From: Arenicola marina
Taxonomy: Eukaryota > Annelida > Polychaeta > Arenicolidae
Assembly: GCA_964019135.1 (NCBI GenBank)
Contig: OZ025261.1
Location: 30,984,029-31,048,028 of the forward strand
Length of the DNA stretch: 64,000 bases
Reading direction: 5' to 3'
Part shown: positions 12,665 to 43,300 of the stretch, in pieces
Layout: each line of letters starts with the position of its first letter
Position numbering within the stretch: position 1 is the stretch's first letter
The notes under the pieces: generated by a model
What the model was told of the DNA's origin: nothing
Database searches by the model: none
The model's input: only the letters and a program-made list of their open reading frames with translations
Position numbers and translations under genes: made by a program

Positions 12665-12864
12665 NNNNNNNNNNNNNNNNNNNNNNNNNNNNNNNNNNNN
12701 NNNNNNNNNNNNNNNNNNNNNNNNNNNNNNNNNNNNNNNNNNNNNNNNNNNNNNNNNNNNNNNNNNNNNNNNNNNNNNNNNNNNNNNNNNNNNNNNNNNN
12801 NNNNNNNNNNNNNNNNNNNNNNNNNNNNNNNNNNNNNNNNNNNNNNNNNNNNNNNNNNNNNNNN
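12665..12864. other. Assembly gap of 200 N
   Basis: Exactly 200 N, a placeholder length. It abuts the 21-bp array, so the array is probably collapsed or truncated by the assembly. Confidence 1.
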
Positions 12865-22337: not shown

Positions 22338-25300
22338 GAGCGGGAGGGAGGGACCCAATATCCCGATTACTCCATGACAACAGATGGGTTTGCGATGGGT
22401 GTGAGCGGAAATCAAGCGGTTTCCGCTTGCTCCTGGTCTCTCCAGGGAGCGCGGGTTATGCGGCTTATCACGTGACCTTGAAGGCGGGCGTGATTGGTTG
22501 ATTCCAATCAGGTGACGTCCGCGTCCAGGGCCTGGCGCCCTTTGTCCGGTACCTGTGTCCAGCATGGGAGAGGGTGTGGGGTGTTGGGGGGAGGAGTAAC
22601 TCCTACGGCTAGAGACCCGTCGATTGAGTTATGGGGGTGGGCGTATAAGCATGACACTATTAGATCTGGCGTATTGATTGCTAGGTTAATGCATGAATGT
22701 GGACCTTATCACTGAAAAAATATATCGGACTATAGATCGAAATGTGGTTCTATCATAAATATCATACGAGTTATGGCAAGAGCTTCGCGTAACGGGTATT
22801 CCATATGGTATACGGTATGCTGGTATTCCATATGGTATACGGTATGCTGGTATGCCATAGGGTATTCGGGTATGGCGTGGGCCAAGGTAACTTCAAAGAG
22901 TCACGTTCGACAAAAGAGAAGGAGTAAAAGGAATTTGTTAGTTTGATTCGTATGTGTGCTATTATCGCCCTCATCTTCTTCTCGTTGACACCCCCCCCCC
23001 ACCCCCGCCCCCCTCTTCCTTCCTGTCCAGTCATTTCACGGTTTGTAATTCGCGAGATAATTTTCGCTGGATTTAATCATCCGGTTGCCTCTTCTGTTGC
23101 CTAACGAATACTTGTTAACAAATTGATGCCTTGTTCCCTGTTAATCCCCTGTTGATTATCTCCTCGTCCTGACAACCACCCCCACCTCCTACCCCCACCT
23201 CCTACACCCACCTCCTACCCCCACCTCCTACACCCACCTCCTACCCCCCACCCCCCTCCTCCCGCACCCGACTGGGCCGCTTTCCCAGGCTCTGTGACCT
23301 CGCTACCTTGCCATCAGCGTCCCATCAGCGGCCATTTTGTTTTGCGAAGGTCCCGTATGACGACGGTGACGGCGTTCCTGTTTATAGACGACAGCCATCA
23401 GCTGTCACGTGACAGGTGATCGCTCACAGTAATTTCCACTTCCGTCTCCCGCCGTTCTCTCGTAAGTTCTGTGATCTGGGCGCCGCGACGAGCGACTGAC
23501 CCAGTTAGCCCGATGTTCGGGGAATTATGACCAGGATCTGAGGTGTAAAGACCTGAGGTGTCAGCCTGATTTGTGATCCTGCTTTATTACAGCGACAGGA
23601 GGGCCGCTACCCGTGGCTCAGGGTGTCACGTGTCTCAAAAATTAAGTGAATAATCAACCGTGACGTCACTGGTCTAATGTGCGCCCTGTTGTGACGTGAC
23701 TGATTCATAAAGTGGGGTTGCCATTGTGTGACGTCACTTTTTTATGGTGTGCGGTTACCATTTGGTTGACGTCTGTGATTGATATTGTGAGGTTACCGTG
23801 ATATGACTTCACTGATTCCGATTGTGAGATTACCACGACGTAGAAACCTATAGTGATGTCACTGACTAAAGAGTGGTGAACACCCAACCGTTACGTCAGT
23901 TGCTATGGTGACTTGCTCGCAAAGTAACGCTACCTTGGTGATTACACATTCGTGACGTCGATTGGTGACGTCATATAGCCAGCAGATGCGTCCATGATCC
24001 ATTCCTGAAACACGAAGGGGGTCACCCCGTGGTCTAGTGGGTAGAGCGGTCGAGTGTGATCTGCTAGGCCAGCCCAACCGGCCGGTGCGCGGTTCGAATC
24101 TCACGCGTGCAATGCTTAGGCTTTCTTGATTCATAAAGAGTAGGGACCACTCCCGGGGAAATGGCTCCTCTCTAACATGACATTTCCCACAGTCGCGATA
24201 TGACCTTTGACATGGGTTAGAGCGCCCTAATCACCCTACCCCACCCCCTCGTGTCTTCCAGACGGAGACTGGTTCCGCTCTCCACGAGGCGGCGCTGTTC
24301 GGCAAGAAGGATGTGGTACGAGTGCTTCTCAAACGAGGTAAGAATCACAACCCATGGACAAAATGTCGGACTGAGTCGGAAATAACTTAGGCACCACGTG
24401 AAATATCCCATAATGCATGCAATGCAGTTTGATTTCTCGGAGTACGTATGCCAGGTAAGCGGTGCTACAATTTTTGGTCCACTGCCTTATGCCTTTATAT
24501 GTAACAGTTCATTCGCGTACTTTATACATTTTATTGATGTACGTTTCATTGATGTACATTTCATTGATGTACATTTCATTGATGTACATTTCATTGATGT
24601 ACATTTCATTGATGTACATTTCATTGATGTACATTTCATTGATGTACGTTTCATTGATGTACATTTCATTGATGTGCGTTTCATTGAGGTACATTTCATT
24701 GGTGTACATTTCATTGATGTACATTTCATTGATGTACGTTTCATTGATGTACATTTCATTGATGTATATTTCATTGGTGTACGTTTCATTGAGGTACATT
24801 TTATTGATGTACATTTCATTGATGTACGTTTCATTGAGGTACATTTTATTGATGTACGTTTCATTGATGTACATTTCATTGGAGTACATTTCATTTTGTT
24901 TATCCAATGAACAACGCAACAGGTATCGACGTCAACCTGACTGACTCCGAGAGCAGGACTCCTCTGGAGGTGCTGAGCGAACACCAATCGCAAATATCAC
25001 TGGACACCGGAAAACTCATCCTAGGTCAGCAACCACACCCCTCTTCCCCACACCTGTCCTCCGGCATCCCCTCCCCACCGCCGCATCACACGTTTTTTTC
25101 CATGGCGAAGCTTTCTACCACTGTGACCAAGGATAAAATCGCACTGTTTCTGCCCCCCCCCACCTCTCCTCCCCTTCACATGGCTGCCTCTGAGCCCAGG
25201 CGGGGGGGCCTCCCTGGTGTAGTGGTTAGCGCACTAGACCGCAGATCAATAGGTCCTGGGTTCGAATCCGGGCTCGGGCACCTAATCTGGGGCATGTTTC

Positions 25301-31300: not shown

Positions 31301-34300
31301 CGACGTGGCCCCACCGCCATAAAAATAGTTCCCCCGCGTAATCATCTTCCGCCGAATGTGGTAAGCTCGTAATTAGTTCCGGTGCGCTCATTGACCTTTA
31401 CAGGCACGTGACCCTTGTGAAGTCTCGCTCGCATGGCCAGCGAGATTGTCTATGAGCTCTCGCGAGATGTGGCCGGGAGGATGGCGAGGCTGGCTGTCCG
31501 TTATTGAGATGTACGTTGTAACGGCTGTCGGATCTGAGGACGCCATGGGGCGTGACTTGCGCGGCGGTGACCGTGACCTTGATGGAGGGTGGCAGCTAGT
31601 GGCCAGGGACGGTGGGGTGGTGGGGGGGGGGGTGACCCTGAGAGAGGGGCAAGCTGTGGGGTGGAGGGCGGGGGAGATGCTTTTGTGTGGTGGGGGCGTG
31701 GGTGATGTGTGTGTGTTTACAAGAGCAGAAGTGGGGGCGACCCCGCGAATGATCAAATATCCATGTTTGTTTTTTTCCATGATATGCTTATCTAATAATA
31801 CGCGAAATCACCGATGGAAGTGTATTAGAATTATTCATTTAAACATTGATCGACATTTTTTTTTTTTCGTGTTTTTTTTTTAGGGGTTGGGTGGGGGGGT
31901 GAGGAGAAATGCTCTTTTTTTGCACGTCCTAATCCGTGCCTCGGGAGGAAAAAAATGACATAGTGTAGGACACCCGAGGCAGCAAAGACCGCGAGTGGCG
32001 CCACTGTGATATCAATCTGCAGGTCAAGGCCGCATCCCCCCCCCCTCCTCATCCTTACCCCCTGACCCATCCCACCTCACCCACCCCTCCACACACACAC
32101 ACACACACACACCCAACCGCCAGTGGCGCCACCAGGCGGCACGATATGACATAGTGGCTCCCGACTGTGGAGACTAATTGGCGCCAATGCGGCGCTGCGA
32201 TTGGACAGCAGACATTGATCGCTTCTGATTGGTTGTCACTGAGCTGGATGTCACCTCGCGGGGTGACGTCACTGTCGTAAAATGTGAACTAAAAAAACAG
32301 TAATTGCCTCGGTACGTCATTCCCACTTCCGTTTCCCGTCCCTAAGGCAGTAAGCCTATTATTGACTTACAGAGAATATCTGCCGAGCCAGCCATGGTGG
32401 GCTAGCTAGGGGGTTACGTGAGGTCATTTTTGGTGAACCGCCGCGGATAATGAGGGGTGAGGGTGGGGGAGGGGGAGGGGGAGGTATGATGAAGGAAAAC
32501 CTCAAAAGTCTGACCGCGAGGCGGGGTGGGGGTGGATGTTGGAAGGGGGGGGGCAGGTTCTCAGTTCGAGGCTGAAACCCGGGCGTATCGATCTTCAGCT
32601 TGCGACTGGTCTACCACCCACAGCCTCCATAGTAGGAGATCAAATGGATGGGTTTGTGGTTTTATCAATGAATAACGGTTATAATGAGACGTAACTGTAC
32701 TGCTACATTGTGTGTATGTGTCACGTACGCTGACCTGTCGCCATATCGCTGCCTTGCAGACTTCCTAGAGGGCAGCAGCATCGACACGAAGCGGTCGTCT
32801 GCTCACTCGGGCTCCTCTGACCTTCTGGGAGACTCTGACCTCTACGACTCCGTGCCCAGGCCGCGGGCCATCAGCTCCTGCACAACGAGGTCAGAGGTCA
32901 CTTCCTGGACGGAGAGTCTGAGCGCGCAGTCCAGTGTGTTCAGCGGACCGAATGATACCGGAGCGGATACCGTGAGCCAAGGCTCGTTCAGAGACAGGTA
33001 GGCCAGGAGCAGGGAACCAGCCTTTACCAGGGTTGGTGCAGTGACAGAGTGGGTACCGTGAGCCAAGGCTCCCTCAGAGACAGGTAGGCCAGGAGCAGGG
33101 AACCAGCCTTTACCAGGGTTGGTGCAGTGACAGAGTGGGTACCCTAAAACCCAAGACTCCCTCAGAGACAGGTAGGCCAGGAGCGGGGAACCAGCCTTTA
33201 CCAGGGTTGGTGCAGTGACAGAGTGGGTACCGTGACCCAAGGCTCCCTCAGAGACAGGTAGGCCAGGAGCGTGGAACCAGCCTTTACCAGGGTTGGTGCA
33301 GTGACAGAGTGGGTACCGTGAGCCAAGGCTCCCTCAGAGACAGGTAGGCCAGGAGCAGGGAACCAGCCTTTACCAGGGTTGGTGCAGTGACAGAGTGGGT
33401 ACCGTGAACCAAGGCTCCCTCAGAGACAGGTAGGCCAGGAGCAGGGAACCAGCCTTTACCAGGGTTGGTGCAGTGACAGAGTGGGTACCGTGAGCCAAGG
33501 CTCCCTCAGAGACAGGTAGGCCAGGAGCAGAGAGTCAGCCTTTACCAGGGTTGGTGCAGACAGAGTGGGTACCGTGAACCAAGGCTCCCTCAGAGACAGG
33601 TAGGCCAGGAGCAGGGAACCAGCCTTTACCAGGGTTGGTGCAGTGACAGAGTGGGTACCGTGAGCCAAGGTTCCCTCAGAGACAGGTAGGCCAGGAGCAG
33701 GGAACCAGCCTTTACCAGGGTTGGTGCAGACAGAGTGGGTACCGTGAACCAAGGCTCCCTCAGAGACAGGTAGGCCAGGAGCAGGGAACCAGCCTTTACC
33801 AGGGTTGGTGCAGTGACAGAGTGGGTACCGTGAGCCAAGGCTCCCTCAGAGACAGGTAGGCCAGGAGTAGGGAACCAGCCTTTACCAGGGTTGATGCAGT
33901 GACAGAGTGGGTACCGTGAGCCAAGGCTCCCTCAGAGACAGGTAGGCCAGGAGTAGGGAACCAGCCTTTACCAGGGTTGGTGCAGTGACAGAGTGGGTAC
34001 CCTAAAACCCAAGGCTCCCTCAAAGACAGGTAGGCCAGGAGCAGGGAGCCAGCCTTTACCAGGGTTGGTGCAGTGACAGAGTGGGTACCGTGAGCCAAGG
34101 CTCCCTCAGAGACAGGTAGGCCAGGAGTAGGGAACCAGCCTTTACCAGGGTTGATGCAGTGACAGAGTGGGTACCGTGAGCCAAGGCTCCCTCAGAGACA
34201 GGTAGGCCAGGAGTAGGGAACCAGCCTTTACCAGGGTTGGTGCAGTGACAGAGTGGGTACCCTAAAACCCAAGGCTCCCTCAAAGACAGGTAGGCCAGGA

Positions 34301-37300
34301 GCAGGGAGCCAGCCTTTACCAGGGTTGGTGCAGTGACAGAGTGGGTACCGTGAGCCAAGGCTCCCTCAGAGACAGGTAGGCCAGGAGCAGAGAGTCAGCC
34401 TTTACCAGGGTTGGTGCAGACAGAGTGGGTACCGTGAACCAAGGCTCCCTCAGAGACAGGTAGGCCAGGAGCAGGGAACCAGCCTTTACCAGGGTTGATG
34501 CAGTGACAGAGTGGGTACCGTGAGCCAAGGTTCCCTCAGAGACAGGTAGGCCAGGAGCAGGGAACCAGCCTTTACCAGGGTTGGTGCAGACAGAGTGGGT
34601 ACCGTGAACCAAGGCTCCCTCAGAGACAGGTAGGCCAGGAGCAGGGAACCAGCCTTTACCAGGGTTGGTGCAGTGACAGAGTGGGTACCGTGAGCCAAGG
34701 CTCCCTCAGAGACAGGTAGGCCAGGAGCAGGGAGCCAGCCTTTGCCAGGGTTGGTGCAGTGACAGAGTGGGTACCGTGAGCCAAGCTCCCTCGGAGACAG
34801 GTAGGCCAGGAGTAGGGAACCAGCCTTTACCAGGGTTGATGCAGTGACAGAGTGGGTACCGTGAGCCAAGGCTCCCTCGGAGACATGTAGGCCAGGAGCA
34901 GGGAACCAGCCTTTACCAGGGTTGGTGCAGTGACAGAGTGGGTACCGTGAGCCAAGGCTCCCTCAGAGACAGGTAGGCCAGGAGTAGGGAACCAGCCTTT
35001 ACCAGGGTTGCTGCAGTGACAGAGTGGGTACCGTGAGCCAAGGCTCCCTCGGAGACATGTAGGCCAGGAGCAGGAAACCAGCCTTTACCAGGGTTGGTGC
35101 AGTGACAGAGTGGGTACCGTGAGCCAAGGCTCCCTCGGAGACATGTAGGCCAGGAGCAGGGAGCCAGCCTTTACCAGGGTTGATGCAGTGACAGAGTGGG
35201 TACCGTGAGCCAAGGCTCCCTCGGAGACATGTAGGCCAGGAGCAGGGAACCAGCCTTTACCAGGGTTGATGCAGTGACAGAGTGGGTGCCGTGAGCCAAG
35301 GCTCCCTCATAGACAGGTAGGCCAGGAGCAGGGAACCAGCCTTTACCAGGGTTGATGCAGTGACAGAGTGGGTACCGTGAGCCAAGGCTCCCTCAGAGAC
35401 AGGTAGGCCAGGAGCAGGGAACCAGCCTTTACCAGGGTTGGTGCAGTGACAGAGTGGGTACCGTGAGCCAAGGCTCCCTCAGAGACATGTAGGCCAGGAG
35501 CAGGGAGCCAGCCTTTACCAGGGTTGATGCAGTGACAGAGTGGGTACCGTGAGCCAAGGCTCCCTCGGAGACATGTAGGCCAGGAGCAGGGAGCCAGCCT
35601 TTACCAGGGTTGATGCAGTGACAGAGTGGGTACCGTGAGCCAAGGCTCCCTCAGAGACAGGTAGGCCAGGAACAGGGAACCAGCCTTTACCAGGGTTGGT
35701 GCAGTGACAGAGTGGGTACCGTGAGCCAAGGCTCCCTCAGAGACATGTAGGCCAGGAGCAGGGAGCCAGCCTTTACCAGGGTTGATGCAGTGACAGAGTG
35801 GGTACCGTGAGCCAAGGCTCCCTCGGAGCCATGTAGGCCAGGAGCAGGGAACCAGCCTTTACCAGGGTTGATGCAGTGACAGAGTGGGTACCGTGAACCA
35901 AGGCTCCCTCAGAGACAGGTAGGCCAGGAGCAGGGAGCCAGCCTTTACCAGGGTTGATGCAGTGACGGAGTGGGCACAGTGAGCCAAGGCTCCCTCAGAG
36001 ACAGGTAGGCCAGGAGCAGGGAACCAGCCTTTACCAGGGTTGGTGCAGTGACAGAGTGGGTACTGTGAGCCAAGGCTCCCTCAGAGACAGGTAGGCCAGA
36101 AGCAGGGAACCAGCCTTTACCAGGGTTGATGCAGACAGAGTGGGTACCGTGAGCCAAGGCTCCCTCAGAGACAGGTAGGCCAGGAGCAGGGAGCCAGCCT
36201 TTACCAGGGTTGATGCAGTGACAGAGTGGGCACAGTGAGCCAAGGCTCCCTCAGAGACAGGTAGGCCAGGAGCAGGGAACCAGCCTTTACCAGGGTTGGT
36301 GCAGTGACAGAGTGGGTACTGTGAGCCAAGGCTCCCTCAGAGACATGTAGGCCAGGAGCAGGGAGCCAGCCTTTACCAGGGTTGATGCAGTGACAGAGTG
36401 GGTACCGTGAGCCAAGGCTCCCTCGGAGACATGTAGGCCAGGAGCAGGGAGCATGGAATATAATATTGCATTAATGAGACCTAATATAACAATATGTTGC
36501 GCTGCAAATATGTTGTTCTAACGTTACAATACGAATATGGAGCGCTTAACGCTATACGACGAGCGGACGTCACAATCCAACATGACAAGATAACTCCTCC
36601 TCTATGTTGCCCTGCGCGTGTGTTACGCCGCCGCCCATTGTGTCAGATTAGCAGTGTGAGACCTTCACTCGCCGTATGTTGCAGTATAACCAGCGAGGGA
36701 GATATCGGCTTGGCGGCAGACCCCCCCGGTGACGTCACGAGACCTCGCAGCGTTCAGAGCCCACCAATAGCCATCGTCGTGCCTAAGGGTGAGTCATGTA
36801 ACCCCGTGACCCCCTGTCCCCGTGACCCACTGACCCTGTGACCTGACCCCTTTAAGCACTTGACACATATTCACTAACCTGACCCCTGTAAACCCTTGGC
36901 GCACATTCACTGACCTGCCCCTTGTTAGCCATTGACCCAAATTCACTGACCTGCCCCTTGTTAGCCATTGACCCAAATTCACTGACCTGCCCCTTGTTAG
37001 CCATTGACCCAAATTCACTGACCTGCCCCTTGTTACCCATTGACCCACATTCACTGACCTGCCCCTTGTTACCCATTGACCCACATTTACTGGTCTGACC
37101 CCTGTTAGACCTTTTGACCAAGATTTACATACCTGATCCCCGTGTGCCTTTGACCCACATAATATGTTTCTTCCCATTGTTAATGCATTGAATTCCCGCC
37201 CCTAACATACGGCGCCTCTCGTCACAAATCTCTCATAAACGAACCTGTTATTCCTCTGAAACCTACAAAAAAAAACGAGTGGCTACACTCTCGTTAATAA

Positions 37301-40300: not shown

Positions 40301-43300
40301 CGACTCGGCGACCAGCGGACCGAGTATCCAGACGGTTGGCCACCCTCAGACCCCGGAGCCGGAACACACACAGCAGGGAGCAGTCGTCCGCCAGAAAGAC
40401 CCGGATGCTCGGCGGAGATCCGGATCGCGAGATTCTTCTGGATCTGGGGCTGGCGAGTGCAGGACCACCCTGGTCAACATGAGGGTGTCCGGGTCCGGGT
40501 CGCACGAGTCCGGGCGGTCCACCCCCTCCTCCTCCAGACCCCCCTCTCTGGAGCTGTCCGGATCCAGCAGCAAGAGGGGCAGCAGGGAGGTGCCGCTGAG
40601 CCCCACGGGATACCAGCAGCCCCCCACCCCCGACCACCCCCCACCCTCCCCCATGACGGCAGCCATCGGGATTCAAGAGAAAATCAACCCCAAGGTGAGG
40701 GCCGAGGCTATAGCTGCTTTGTGTTGAATTGGAAAGTTTGTATTTTAGGTGAGGGCCGAGGCTATAGCTGCTTTGTTTTTAATTGGAAAGTTTGTATTAT
40801 AGGTGAGAGTGAGGTGAGGGCCGAGGCTATAGCGGGTATGGTTTTAATTGGAAAGTTTGTATTATAGATGTGGGCGTGGTGAGGGACGAGGCTATAGCTG
40901 GTATGTGTCTATTGGAAAGTTTGTATTATTGGTGAGAGTGAGGTGATGGCCGACGCTATAGTTGGTATGTGTTTAATCGGAAAGTTTGTATTATGAGTGA
41001 GGTGAGGGCCGAGGCTTTAGCTGGTATGTGTTTAATTGGAAAGTTTGTAATATAGATGAGAGTGTTGTGAGGGGAAAGGCTTATCTAGTATGTGTTTAAT
41101 TATAAAGTTTGTATTATAGGTTTTCTTTATTGCATGACTACCAATACATAATATGTAAAACATGTTACTAAAGACACTTTGTTGGACTATCAAATGCAGT
41201 ACGGAAAGTGTGGCATTCGTCAAATAGACCGATCCAGGCTGTCAATCTTTCATTGACGTCACTGTTACTTTTATCCAATCGTGAGGCGAAAAAAGGTCTT
41301 CCATGTGCGTTATGTCGGACAAATAAGTCGGACAAACAAAGCAGCATGGCACTTTGTTGTCAGTTTCAGAGAAGAGTACTTCTCATTTGTACCCGCCATC
41401 AGCAATGATTGTCAATTTCATACTCACAATTAAGGGAAAAGGACTCAAACGTGGGCGGAGCTTAGTGTCGGAGTATGGATCGGTCTATTGGGACATCGCT
41501 GCGGTTTTTGTTTCTACCTTACCACGTTCAGATAAATACTTAAACAATAATGCTAAGCAAGATCACACAATATAAGCTAATGTAACGTAATATAGTCGTA
41601 ATGGGTGGAAAATAGCTGGGCTGCTTTAAGCTCTACTGGTGACTGATTACAATGTTACAATTAAACAAATTACAATGGGGCGTGAATATATAGTGACGTA
41701 GTTTAGATACCGCTGTAAGCGTCCTGAGCTGAAACTCATCCATCAGCTGAAGATCATGACCAACGGACCATTTGTTGAAAACCTGGCGTCTGCCTCTAGG
41801 GCACCTTTCATGTAACTTAATATCATTGTCTCGGGAGGTTCCTTGGCGCACGTGTGCACAAAAATGGCCTAAAACACCAAAGAGTTATTTCTGCCGGTAA
41901 TCGCGATGCCGTCTCGCGAGTTTCGTTGATGGCTTCTCAGATTGTAGAGAGTTCAGTTTTAATCATCTATATACGAGAACTCTGTAACGTCTTCTAGGCT
42001 TCCGGTCGAATAAAACTGTTCACCGTTGTAGACAATGGATCGAGGTGAGATTGGTTCGATCTTGTTCTCGTTGTAATCGTTGATCGAGGAACACGTCCGT
42101 GTTTGCAGGAGAAGCGTCGATCACGTGATATGGAGACGATCACGGAGGCTGAGTATCTGGCGCGGGAGGCGGAGAGATATCTGGGACCTCGCACCAGCAC
42201 CCCCGCCACCAGCACCCCCGCCACCAGCACCCCCGCCACCGCGGACCAGGAAGCCGGAACTGGACTTCCCGCCGATTGCGCTGCGACGGCGAAAGCCGCT
42301 GATGGAACGCAATCCGGGGAGGACGGAGCGGGCGGTGATCCGGACCAGGAGACTGGCGACTGCTCACCTGGGGGAGCCACCGCCACAGCTTGCATCCTCC
42401 GCCGTAAGAAGGCGCCACCGGCCCACCACGCGGATCTGCTGCCTAATGGCGAGAATCCATTTCTAGGTCAGTCATTGTTTTTAGTGTGTCATCAGTGTGC
42501 GCTTATTTATTCTATTATGTACTGTATTTGTGTTCTTTTCACTACAAGTGAATATAATAACATTTATTCTTATTTCGTATTACTTTGTTATGTTTTGAAT
42601 GTCTGCGTGTAATATGCTATTGTTCCCATGCCATCATACATCTTTTGGTGCAATTTCGCTTCACCTTGATATTTCAATCATTGTGTTTATTCCTCCTTCT
42701 AGCATTATGATGTTACTATTTTAGTTGTGTTGTTTTGTGCATGCGTGTGCCGCCGGAGTGGACCGGTAGAGGCGCGGCAGTAGATATCACGACCTGTGTC
42801 CGTAATTTCATTCTTTGCCACATTGGTCGCATTTGTCACACGGGACCGAAAACCTGGAGACTTTCTGAGATAAACTAACCAAGCTCTGTGTTTTGGGAGA
42901 TTACTCAAAACCCGGGTCTTCCCAATGGCGCCCGCTTTGTTGCCCATGGCAACGGCGGTCCTCTGTCCCGGGTTATGATGGAAATCCAATTGGCTTCAAA
43001 TTCAGGAACGCGTTGCATTGTGGGAGTGCCGGACGCTGCGAGCTCGCCATGTCACGTGACCTTGATCTTGGATATTGCACTGGTGGTAAGGAATACCTGG
43101 GTCCCTGCCTAGCGCAGGACAAAGCAGGGAACGAGCTTGGTGCAAGTTTACCCATAACATAGTTGACCTTACCCAATCCACGTTCCCTCAGGTCCAGGTT
43201 CACTTCCCCTTTACTAACCGCGATGTGACTATGTAGATGTGGACCGTTTGTTTGCTCTGTATTCCTTTTTTTTACCACCACTGGCTTTGTCGATAATTCA

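What the first reader, a model, noticed from the sequence alone, without database searches (positions are those of the whole stretch)
32760..36452. Minisatellite built from an exon 3' end and its splice donor, with potential 42-nt cassette exons
The 86-bp unit copies about 38 nt of exon 5 plus GTAGGCCAGG. In the standard unit, GTTGGTGCAG is followed by 42 nt ending CAGAGACAG and then GTAGGC. Those 42 nt are 14 codons and, entered in the phase left by exon 5, read SDRVGTVSQGSLRD, close to the exon's own end DTVSQGSFRD. The intron between cassettes would be 44 nt. So the array could supply about 40 decoy donors or a variable number of in-frame mini-exons. Units with 2-bp indels would break the frame. 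Seen: the duplication and phases. Inferred: any use in splicing. The very short intron and weak pyrimidine tract argue for caution.
Basis: partly seen in the sequence, partly recalled or inferred. Interest (0 to 1): 0.85.

Follow-up and report, generated by a model that had tools for sequence, protein, structure and literature searches.

The report
Repeat array copying a splice donor
A 3.5-kb run of about 40 copies repeats the end of one exon together with its splice signal inside an animal gene; it is probably spliced out as intron, but similar arrays sit on the same side of exons in other genes sampled from this genome, which makes it a natural experiment on how cells choose splice sites.

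Summary
An 86-bp minisatellite (32961-36450, 40.6 copies) starts 37 nt inside exon 5 and repeats the exon end plus donor: 41 GTAGGC donors, 40 potential cassettes, 31 of 40 in frame and open. The cassette reading is not supported: the acceptors score no better than ordinary AGs, nine of 40 units break frame, variation shows no coding constraint. Extending exon 5 to a downstream donor hits a stop at once. Best reading: a "mirage", a tandem duplication across a 5' splice site, first donor used, the rest intronic. Mirages are described in amphioxus; the human CBS 31-bp VNTR has the same anatomy. The organism is unidentified; one test does not support lancelet. New part: of 62 myosin/kinesin exons sampled elsewhere in this genome, 8 have arrays spanning the donor, 0 the acceptor. 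Genome-wide, donor-motif pairs are 4.0-fold above a reversed control, acceptor-motif pairs 1.2-fold. Donor-copying arrays look common and one-sided here, consistent with splicing that tolerates extra donors but not extra acceptors. No transcripts were available.

The parts
32760..32997 (+). Exon 5 of an ankyrin-repeat gene (238 nt, leaves 2 nt of a codon)
   Evidence: open frame FLEGSSIDT...DTVSQGSFRD between CTTGCAG and CAG|GTAGGC; phases chain with exons 3, 6 and 7
32961..36450 (+). 86-bp minisatellite spanning the exon-5 splice donor (mirage), 40.6 copies
   Evidence: TRF; unit parsing
32998..33003 (+). First donor CAG|GTAGGC, which keeps the reading frame to exon 6; read-through gives AGG TAG, an immediate stop
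33042..33083 (+). First of 40 potential cassettes (42 nt, SDRVGTVSQGSLRD); use in splicing not supported
33789..34387 (+). Recent internal duplication: 339 bp exact at 33789 and again at 34049 (units 11-13 = units 14-16)
36685..36788 (+). Exon 6 (SITSEGDIG...), acceptor GTTGCAG
40693..41121 (+). Second donor-abutting array in the same gene (54-65 bp units AG|GTGAGGGCCGAGG...TTTGTATTATAG) at the end of exon 9; starts two bases before the donor

Best explanation
The array is a mirage. A short tandem duplication once covered the last ~37 nt of exon 5, its donor and ~49 nt of the intron. The downstream copy drifted and was then amplified to about 40 copies by slippage or unequal exchange. Splicing uses the first, exon-proximal donor joined to exon 6; the other 40 donors and the exon-like pieces are removed as intron. 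Such arrays survive at donors because the first donor transcribed is the correct one, whereas extra acceptors would be met before the correct one. Shown: anatomy, phases, donor and acceptor scores, neutral-looking variation, other examples in the genome and the donor/acceptor asymmetry in the sample. Inferred: actual splice use, the mutational route, and selection as the reason for the asymmetry.
For: Array edge 37 nt inside the exon. Joining donor 1 to exon 6 keeps the frame, while reading past donor 1 gives a stop at once. All 40 units share the same four differences from the exon end, so amplification came from a diverged copy. No coding constraint seen: 12 distinct substitutions in the 44-nt half (40 units), 12 in the 42-nt half (31 units), and length changes only in the exon-like half. 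Acceptor percentile 57.7-77.9. Eight of 62 sampled myosin/kinesin exons have arrays spanning the donor with 13-58 nt of exon end; 0 of 62 span the acceptor; 2.06 expected of each by uniform placement; sign test p=0.0078. Donor-motif pairs genome-wide 8480 vs 2146 for the reversed control; acceptor-motif pairs 339 vs 276. Of 85 distinct arrays in these loci, 16 carry a strong donor on the sense strand, 3 on the antisense, 3.35 expected from shuffles. Amphioxus mirages are reported not to disturb normal splicing (PMC3087553, PMC3902484, passages).
Against: No transcript was seen. The splice matrices were written from memory, not trained on this species. Exon ends in the survey are the best-scoring site near an HMM match (12 of the first 45 donors fell below my cut of 6 bits). 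Six of the 8 spanning cases have donors above that cut; L055 (ACC|GTGAGT) and L078 (CAA|GTGACG, perhaps a GC donor) do not. Exons share genes (L026 and L075 probably lie in one myosin gene), so 62 is not 62 independent draws. Arrays that merely abut a boundary are not one-sided: 5 at donors, 6 at acceptors. Genome-wide pattern counts are inflated by single large arrays. In the window and its flanks, 71 arrays, strong donors were 3 on this gene's strand to 10 on the other, 1.92 expected by shuffles; the strands of neighbouring genes are unknown. Amphioxus mirages are also reported at 3' (acceptor) boundaries.
Confidence: 0.85

Rival explanations
1. Some array units are used as in-frame 42-nt mini-exons, adding a variable number of 14-residue repeats to a disordered stretch of the protein.
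For: 31 of 40 units are open, in phase and bounded by AG and GT. Non-adjacent units leave introns of 130 nt or so and more, so intron length alone does not forbid it. TTTAC upstream of TGCAG could serve as a branch point (my reading).
Against: Acceptor no better than an ordinary AG (57.7-77.9th percentile); the best-scoring AG of the unit examined is another one, at offset 33 (80.1), which would give 53 nt, out of frame. 9 of 40 units break frame. No sign of coding constraint. In 7 of 8 other donor-spanning arrays the first unit has no acceptor above the 90th percentile.
Confidence: 0.04
2. The donor array is functional as a decoy or brake: downstream donors are sometimes used or bind U1, giving transcripts with an early stop or slower splicing, tuned by array length.
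For: 31 of 41 donors are strong (98.9th percentile), 10 are CAT|GT at the 90.8th. Read-through gives an immediate stop. Donor copies keep GT in 119 of 120 counted copies across 9 arrays. The CBS VNTR is the analogue; its reported effects on splicing are recalled, not read.
Against: The 120 copies were found by likeness to the donor context, and GT retention is expected from array homogenisation. Amphioxus reports say mirages do not disturb splicing. Ten distal units (22-40) have lost the -1 G of the donor.
Confidence: 0.08
3. The array is an assembly artefact.
For: 339 bp of exact internal duplication.
Against: 29 distinct unit types among 40; unrelated arrays of the same design at eight other exons on six contigs.
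Confidence: 0.02

Closest known systems
Amphioxus 'mirages' (Adh3, globins BflGb6 and BflGb9, troponin C; imperfect ones in PGBD5)
   Same: Minisatellite-like tandem duplications of an exon-intron boundary, many units with AG/GT signals; the exonisation idea is already proposed there (PMC3087553 and PMC3902484, passages read; the original 2002 Adh paper is not held)
   Different: Those cover both 5' and 3' boundaries, and few copies in the case whose count I read (3 and 6 units of 150-160 bp in BflGb6). Here there are 40 copies at a donor, and a sample of one genome in which 8 of 62 donors and 0 of 62 acceptors are spanned. This genome showed no GFP-family match, so lancelet is not supported, nor excluded.
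Human CBS 31-bp VNTR c.1444_1467+7(16_21)
   Same: By its name the unit is the last 24 nt of an exon plus 7 nt of intron, repeated 16-21 times and polymorphic (PMC2630376, passages)
   Different: Shorter unit, more exon than intron, no 44-nt intron part; a single human gene
Intron gain by tandem duplication of splice-site-bearing segments
   Same: Duplication across or near a splice site supplies extra splice signals (PMC2812944 passages; PMC4974935 title and start of abstract only)
   Different: No new intron or exon is shown here

Membership tests
mirage | tandem repeat spans an exon-intron boundary | tested here: met
   array starts 37 nt inside exon 5 and runs through the donor
mirage | repeat units carry splice signals | tested here: met
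   41 GTAGGC donors, 31 of 41 strong
mirage | regular splicing is undisturbed | not testable with these tools
   no transcripts; frame continuity only
mirage | length instability | tested here: inconclusive
   339-bp exact internal duplication; one genome only
mirage | found in cephalochordates (where described in the papers seen) | tested here: inconclusive
   no GFP-family match and no Chitin_bind_4 match, but nothing rang in the control genomes either; organism unnamed
tandem cassette exons | usable acceptor before each unit | tested here: not met
   57.7-77.9th percentile of AGs in 40 of 40 units (recalled matrix)
tandem cassette exons | frame kept and coding constraint | tested here: not met
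   9 of 40 break frame; 4 synonymous to 7 non-synonymous
CBS-type exon-end VNTR | unit = exon 3' end plus donor, many copies | tested here: met
CBS-type exon-end VNTR | copy number polymorphic among individuals | not testable with these tools
   one assembly

The most novel reading that the evidence does not exclude
In this animal genome minisatellites seeded across 5' splice sites are a common and one-sided feature (8 of 62 sampled exons; 95% interval 6-24%). The lack of acceptor-spanning arrays would be a selection footprint of splice-site choice in order of transcription: extra donors after the real one are harmless, extra acceptors before the real one are not. Mirages would then be a genome-scale natural experiment on splice-site competition, possibly outside cephalochordates.
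Probability: 0.5. Interest if true: 0.72.

Novelty: new member of a known kind. Interest (0 to 1): 0.52.

Why it matters
Some forty donors in a row, most of them strong, with only the first one keeping the protein intact, is a severe test of how a spliceosome picks a 5' splice site. If such arrays are as common and as one-sided in the whole genome as in this sample, the asymmetry lets one measure splice-site competition rules from genome sequence, and gives a continuous supply of raw material for new introns and exons.

Tried and rejected
Tried without result: protein homologues of a joined 743-aa query, residues 95-310, covering part of exon 3 to exon 7 (1785 candidates, none at E <= 0.001); Rfam on the window (0 matches at gathering thresholds); Pfam on L009 (only DUF4744, no single stretch passing) and L011 (nothing); GFP and chitin-binding families as taxon markers (0 matches, controls silent too). 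Paper searches for mirages and exon-boundary minisatellites (one search found no paper) listed the amphioxus globin and PGBD5 papers and a survey of internal repeats in human segmental duplications (PMC2812944); no title or abstract start in those listings describes a genome-wide survey of donor-spanning arrays. The original Adh mirage paper is not held.

Considered and rejected: dispersed repeat (exact core only here); the weak pyrimidine tract as the decisive argument (the exon-6 acceptor is not strongly pyrimidine-rich either; the full score was used instead); treating the two arrays of this one gene as proof of enrichment (two cases, chosen after the fact), which led to the 62-exon survey. 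Rows dropped from the survey: 5 of 50 loci (L039, L040, L042, L043, L048; small contigs with several in-frame stops), and 3 myosin matches with an in-frame stop skipped when choosing the next ten. The first orientation of minus-strand loci was wrong and redone; double-counted overlapping loci and was redone with duplicates removed.
Full report
What is there. The window lies in an 867-Mb genome (C14:30984029-31048028) with spliced animal-type genes. The gene on the + strand has ankyrin-repeat exons in the window (Pfam Ank, Ank_2) and two SAM-domain matches about 17 and 18 kb beyond its end (L010, E 1e-7 and 1.3e-5). Ankyrin repeats followed by two SAM domains suggest an ANKS1-like scaffold gene; that name is recalled, not tested. 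Exon 5 is 32760-32997; exon 6 is 36685-36788; phases chain across exons 3, 5, 6 and 7. Between exons 5 and 6 lies an 86-bp minisatellite, 32961-36450, 40.6 copies, 94% matches.

The unit. The array begins 37 nt inside exon 5; the exon end and the unit consensus agree at 33 of 37 positions up to the donor. There are 41 GTAGGC donors: 31 preceded by CAG and 10 by CAT, the latter ending units 22-40 only. Each of 40 units has a 44-nt GT..AG part and an exon-like part of 42 nt (31 units), 40 (5), 44 (3) or 41 (1). The 31 are open and in phase; 19 of them read exactly SDRVGTVSQGSLRD. All 40 units share the same four differences from the exon, so a copy diverged first and was amplified afterwards. 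Units 11-13 and 14-16 are an exact 339-bp duplication, so the array has changed recently.

Cassettes or not. With a splice matrix written from memory and ranked against 4328 GT and 2862 AG sites of the window outside the array, the CAG donors stand at the 98.9th percentile and the CAT donors at the 90.8th; this gene's other donors stand at 99.6-100 (exons 1, 2, 6, 8, 9), 91.9 (exon 3) and 84.8 (exon 7), with exon 10 misindexed and unscored. The TGCAG acceptors stand at 57.7-77.9, while acceptors of exons 1, 2, 5, 6, 7, 8 and 10 stand at 90.9 or more (exon 3 at 57.8 has an uncertain edge, and my exon-9 edge was off by two bases and unscored). Distinct substitutions number 12 in the 44-nt half (40 units) and 12 in the exon-like half (31 full-length units); in the latter 4 are synonymous, 7 non-synonymous and one lies in the split last codon, against about 30% synonymous expected; length changes fall only in the exon-like half. 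Reading past donor 1 gives AGG TAG. So the array multiplies donors rather than exons, and among plain extensions of exon 5 only the first donor keeps the protein.

Is it alone? No. I sampled exons by searching the same genome with the myosin-head and kinesin families (77 and 133 matches) and reading 62 exon loci: 45 of the 50 loci cut out by the two searches, then 10 myosin and 7 kinesin exons more in rank order. Eight of 62 have a TRF array that begins 13-58 nt inside the exon and runs through the donor: L026, L033, L049, L055, L074, L075, L078, L084; none of 62 has an array running through the acceptor. Uniform placement of the 95 arrays predicts 2.06 of each; Poisson P(>=8)=0.0013, P(0)=0.13; Fisher 8/62 vs 0/62 P=0.006; sign test P=0.0078. 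The sequences are plain to the eye: in L026 the exon end ...CTGGAGAAG|GTAGGCTTGTTCCC recurs 24 times downstream in the stretch held. Arrays that merely abut a boundary are balanced, 5 at donors and 6 at acceptors.

Further checks. Of 85 distinct arrays in those loci, 16 carry a strong donor on the sense strand, 3 on the antisense strand, 3.35 expected from shuffled units; for acceptors 6, 1 and 4.27 (the L054 and L084 arrays are probably one). Across the whole genome CAGGTRAGT pairs 30-58 nt apart number 8480 against 2146 for the reversed pattern, TYTTGCAGG pairs 339 against 276; these counts are inflated by long single arrays. Against this, in the window and its 100 kb of flanks (71 arrays) the donor-bearing arrays are 3 on this gene's strand to 10 on the other, against 1.92 expected by shuffles; the strands of neighbouring genes are unknown.

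Known relatives. Tandem repeats spanning exon-intron boundaries are called mirages in amphioxus: Adh3, globins, troponin C, and imperfect ones in PGBD5. Many units carry AG/GT signals, clusters vary in length, both boundaries can be involved, and RT-PCR suggested that regular splicing goes on; exonisation of a mirage unit is already proposed there (PMC3087553 and PMC3902484, passages only). Human CBS has a 31-bp VNTR named c.1444_1467+7(16_21), that is 24 nt of exon end and 7 nt of intron in 16-21 copies (PMC2630376, passages). The present array is the same kind of thing. Whether the organism is a lancelet is open: no GFP-family match was found (that lancelets carry many such genes is recalled) and no arthropod-type cuticle domain either; in both searches the control genomes were silent too.

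Mechanism. Shown: a duplication across the donor, later amplification, mostly strong donors, weak acceptors, no visible coding constraint, and the same design at other exons with a donor-only bias in the sample. Inferred: the first donor is used; extra donors are tolerated because the right donor is transcribed first and pairs with its exon; equivalent acceptor arrays would place wrong acceptors ahead of the right one and be lost. A mutational preference for donors would also give the bias and is not excluded.

A second array in the gene, 40693-41121, begins two bases before the exon-9 donor; its units run AG|GTGAGG...TTTGTATTATAG. Eleven GTRAG sites in it score at 87.1-99.9; five unit-end acceptors (TATTTTAG, TATTATAG, TAATATAG) score at 78.0-98.1, six CTATAG/CTTTAG-type sites inside the units at 15.5-41.7. 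At two places (40748 and 40802) such an acceptor meets a GTGAG donor without an exon between them, as in recursive splice sites; this was not pursued.

Noticed in passing
window 40693-41121: Second array starting at the exon-9 donor; units are 54-65-bp mini-intron-like pieces, and at 40748 and 40802 their end (TATTTTAG, TATTATAG) meets the next GTGAG, like recursive splice sites.
   Followed up: partly
L033 (C7:32812639-32815821), donor at 1686 on the reverse complement: 37-bp array at a myosin donor with a 12-nt in-frame exon copy behind a C-rich acceptor (95.3rd percentile): a better cassette candidate than the one reported, though the mini-intron is only 25 nt.
   Followed up: partly
window 1-64000 and L009-L018: Tandem repeats of score 300 or more cover 36% of the window and 20% of the 100 kb around it.
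   Followed up: yes
window 24525-24895: 15-bp array ending 27 nt before the likely exon-3 acceptor.
   Followed up: no
window 42192-42240: 15-bp repeat inside coding exon 10 (TSTPA repeats).
   Followed up: no
G000:C4:380231-384073: Five myosin matches over overlapping profile positions (89-154) with open frames of 63 to 666 aa; perhaps another array or repeated exons.
   Followed up: no
G000 contigs C390, C504, C536, C720: Small contigs with strong kinesin or ATPase matches interrupted by TAA/TAG only; perhaps contaminants with a ciliate-like code.
   Followed up: no
G000:C1:605781-612276: Array of 39-bp spacing with CAGGTAAGT in its units, dozens of pattern matches in a row.
   Followed up: no
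window 12665-12864: Run of 200 N beside the 21-bp array GTTGGTAAGCCACCGTTACAG.
   Followed up: no
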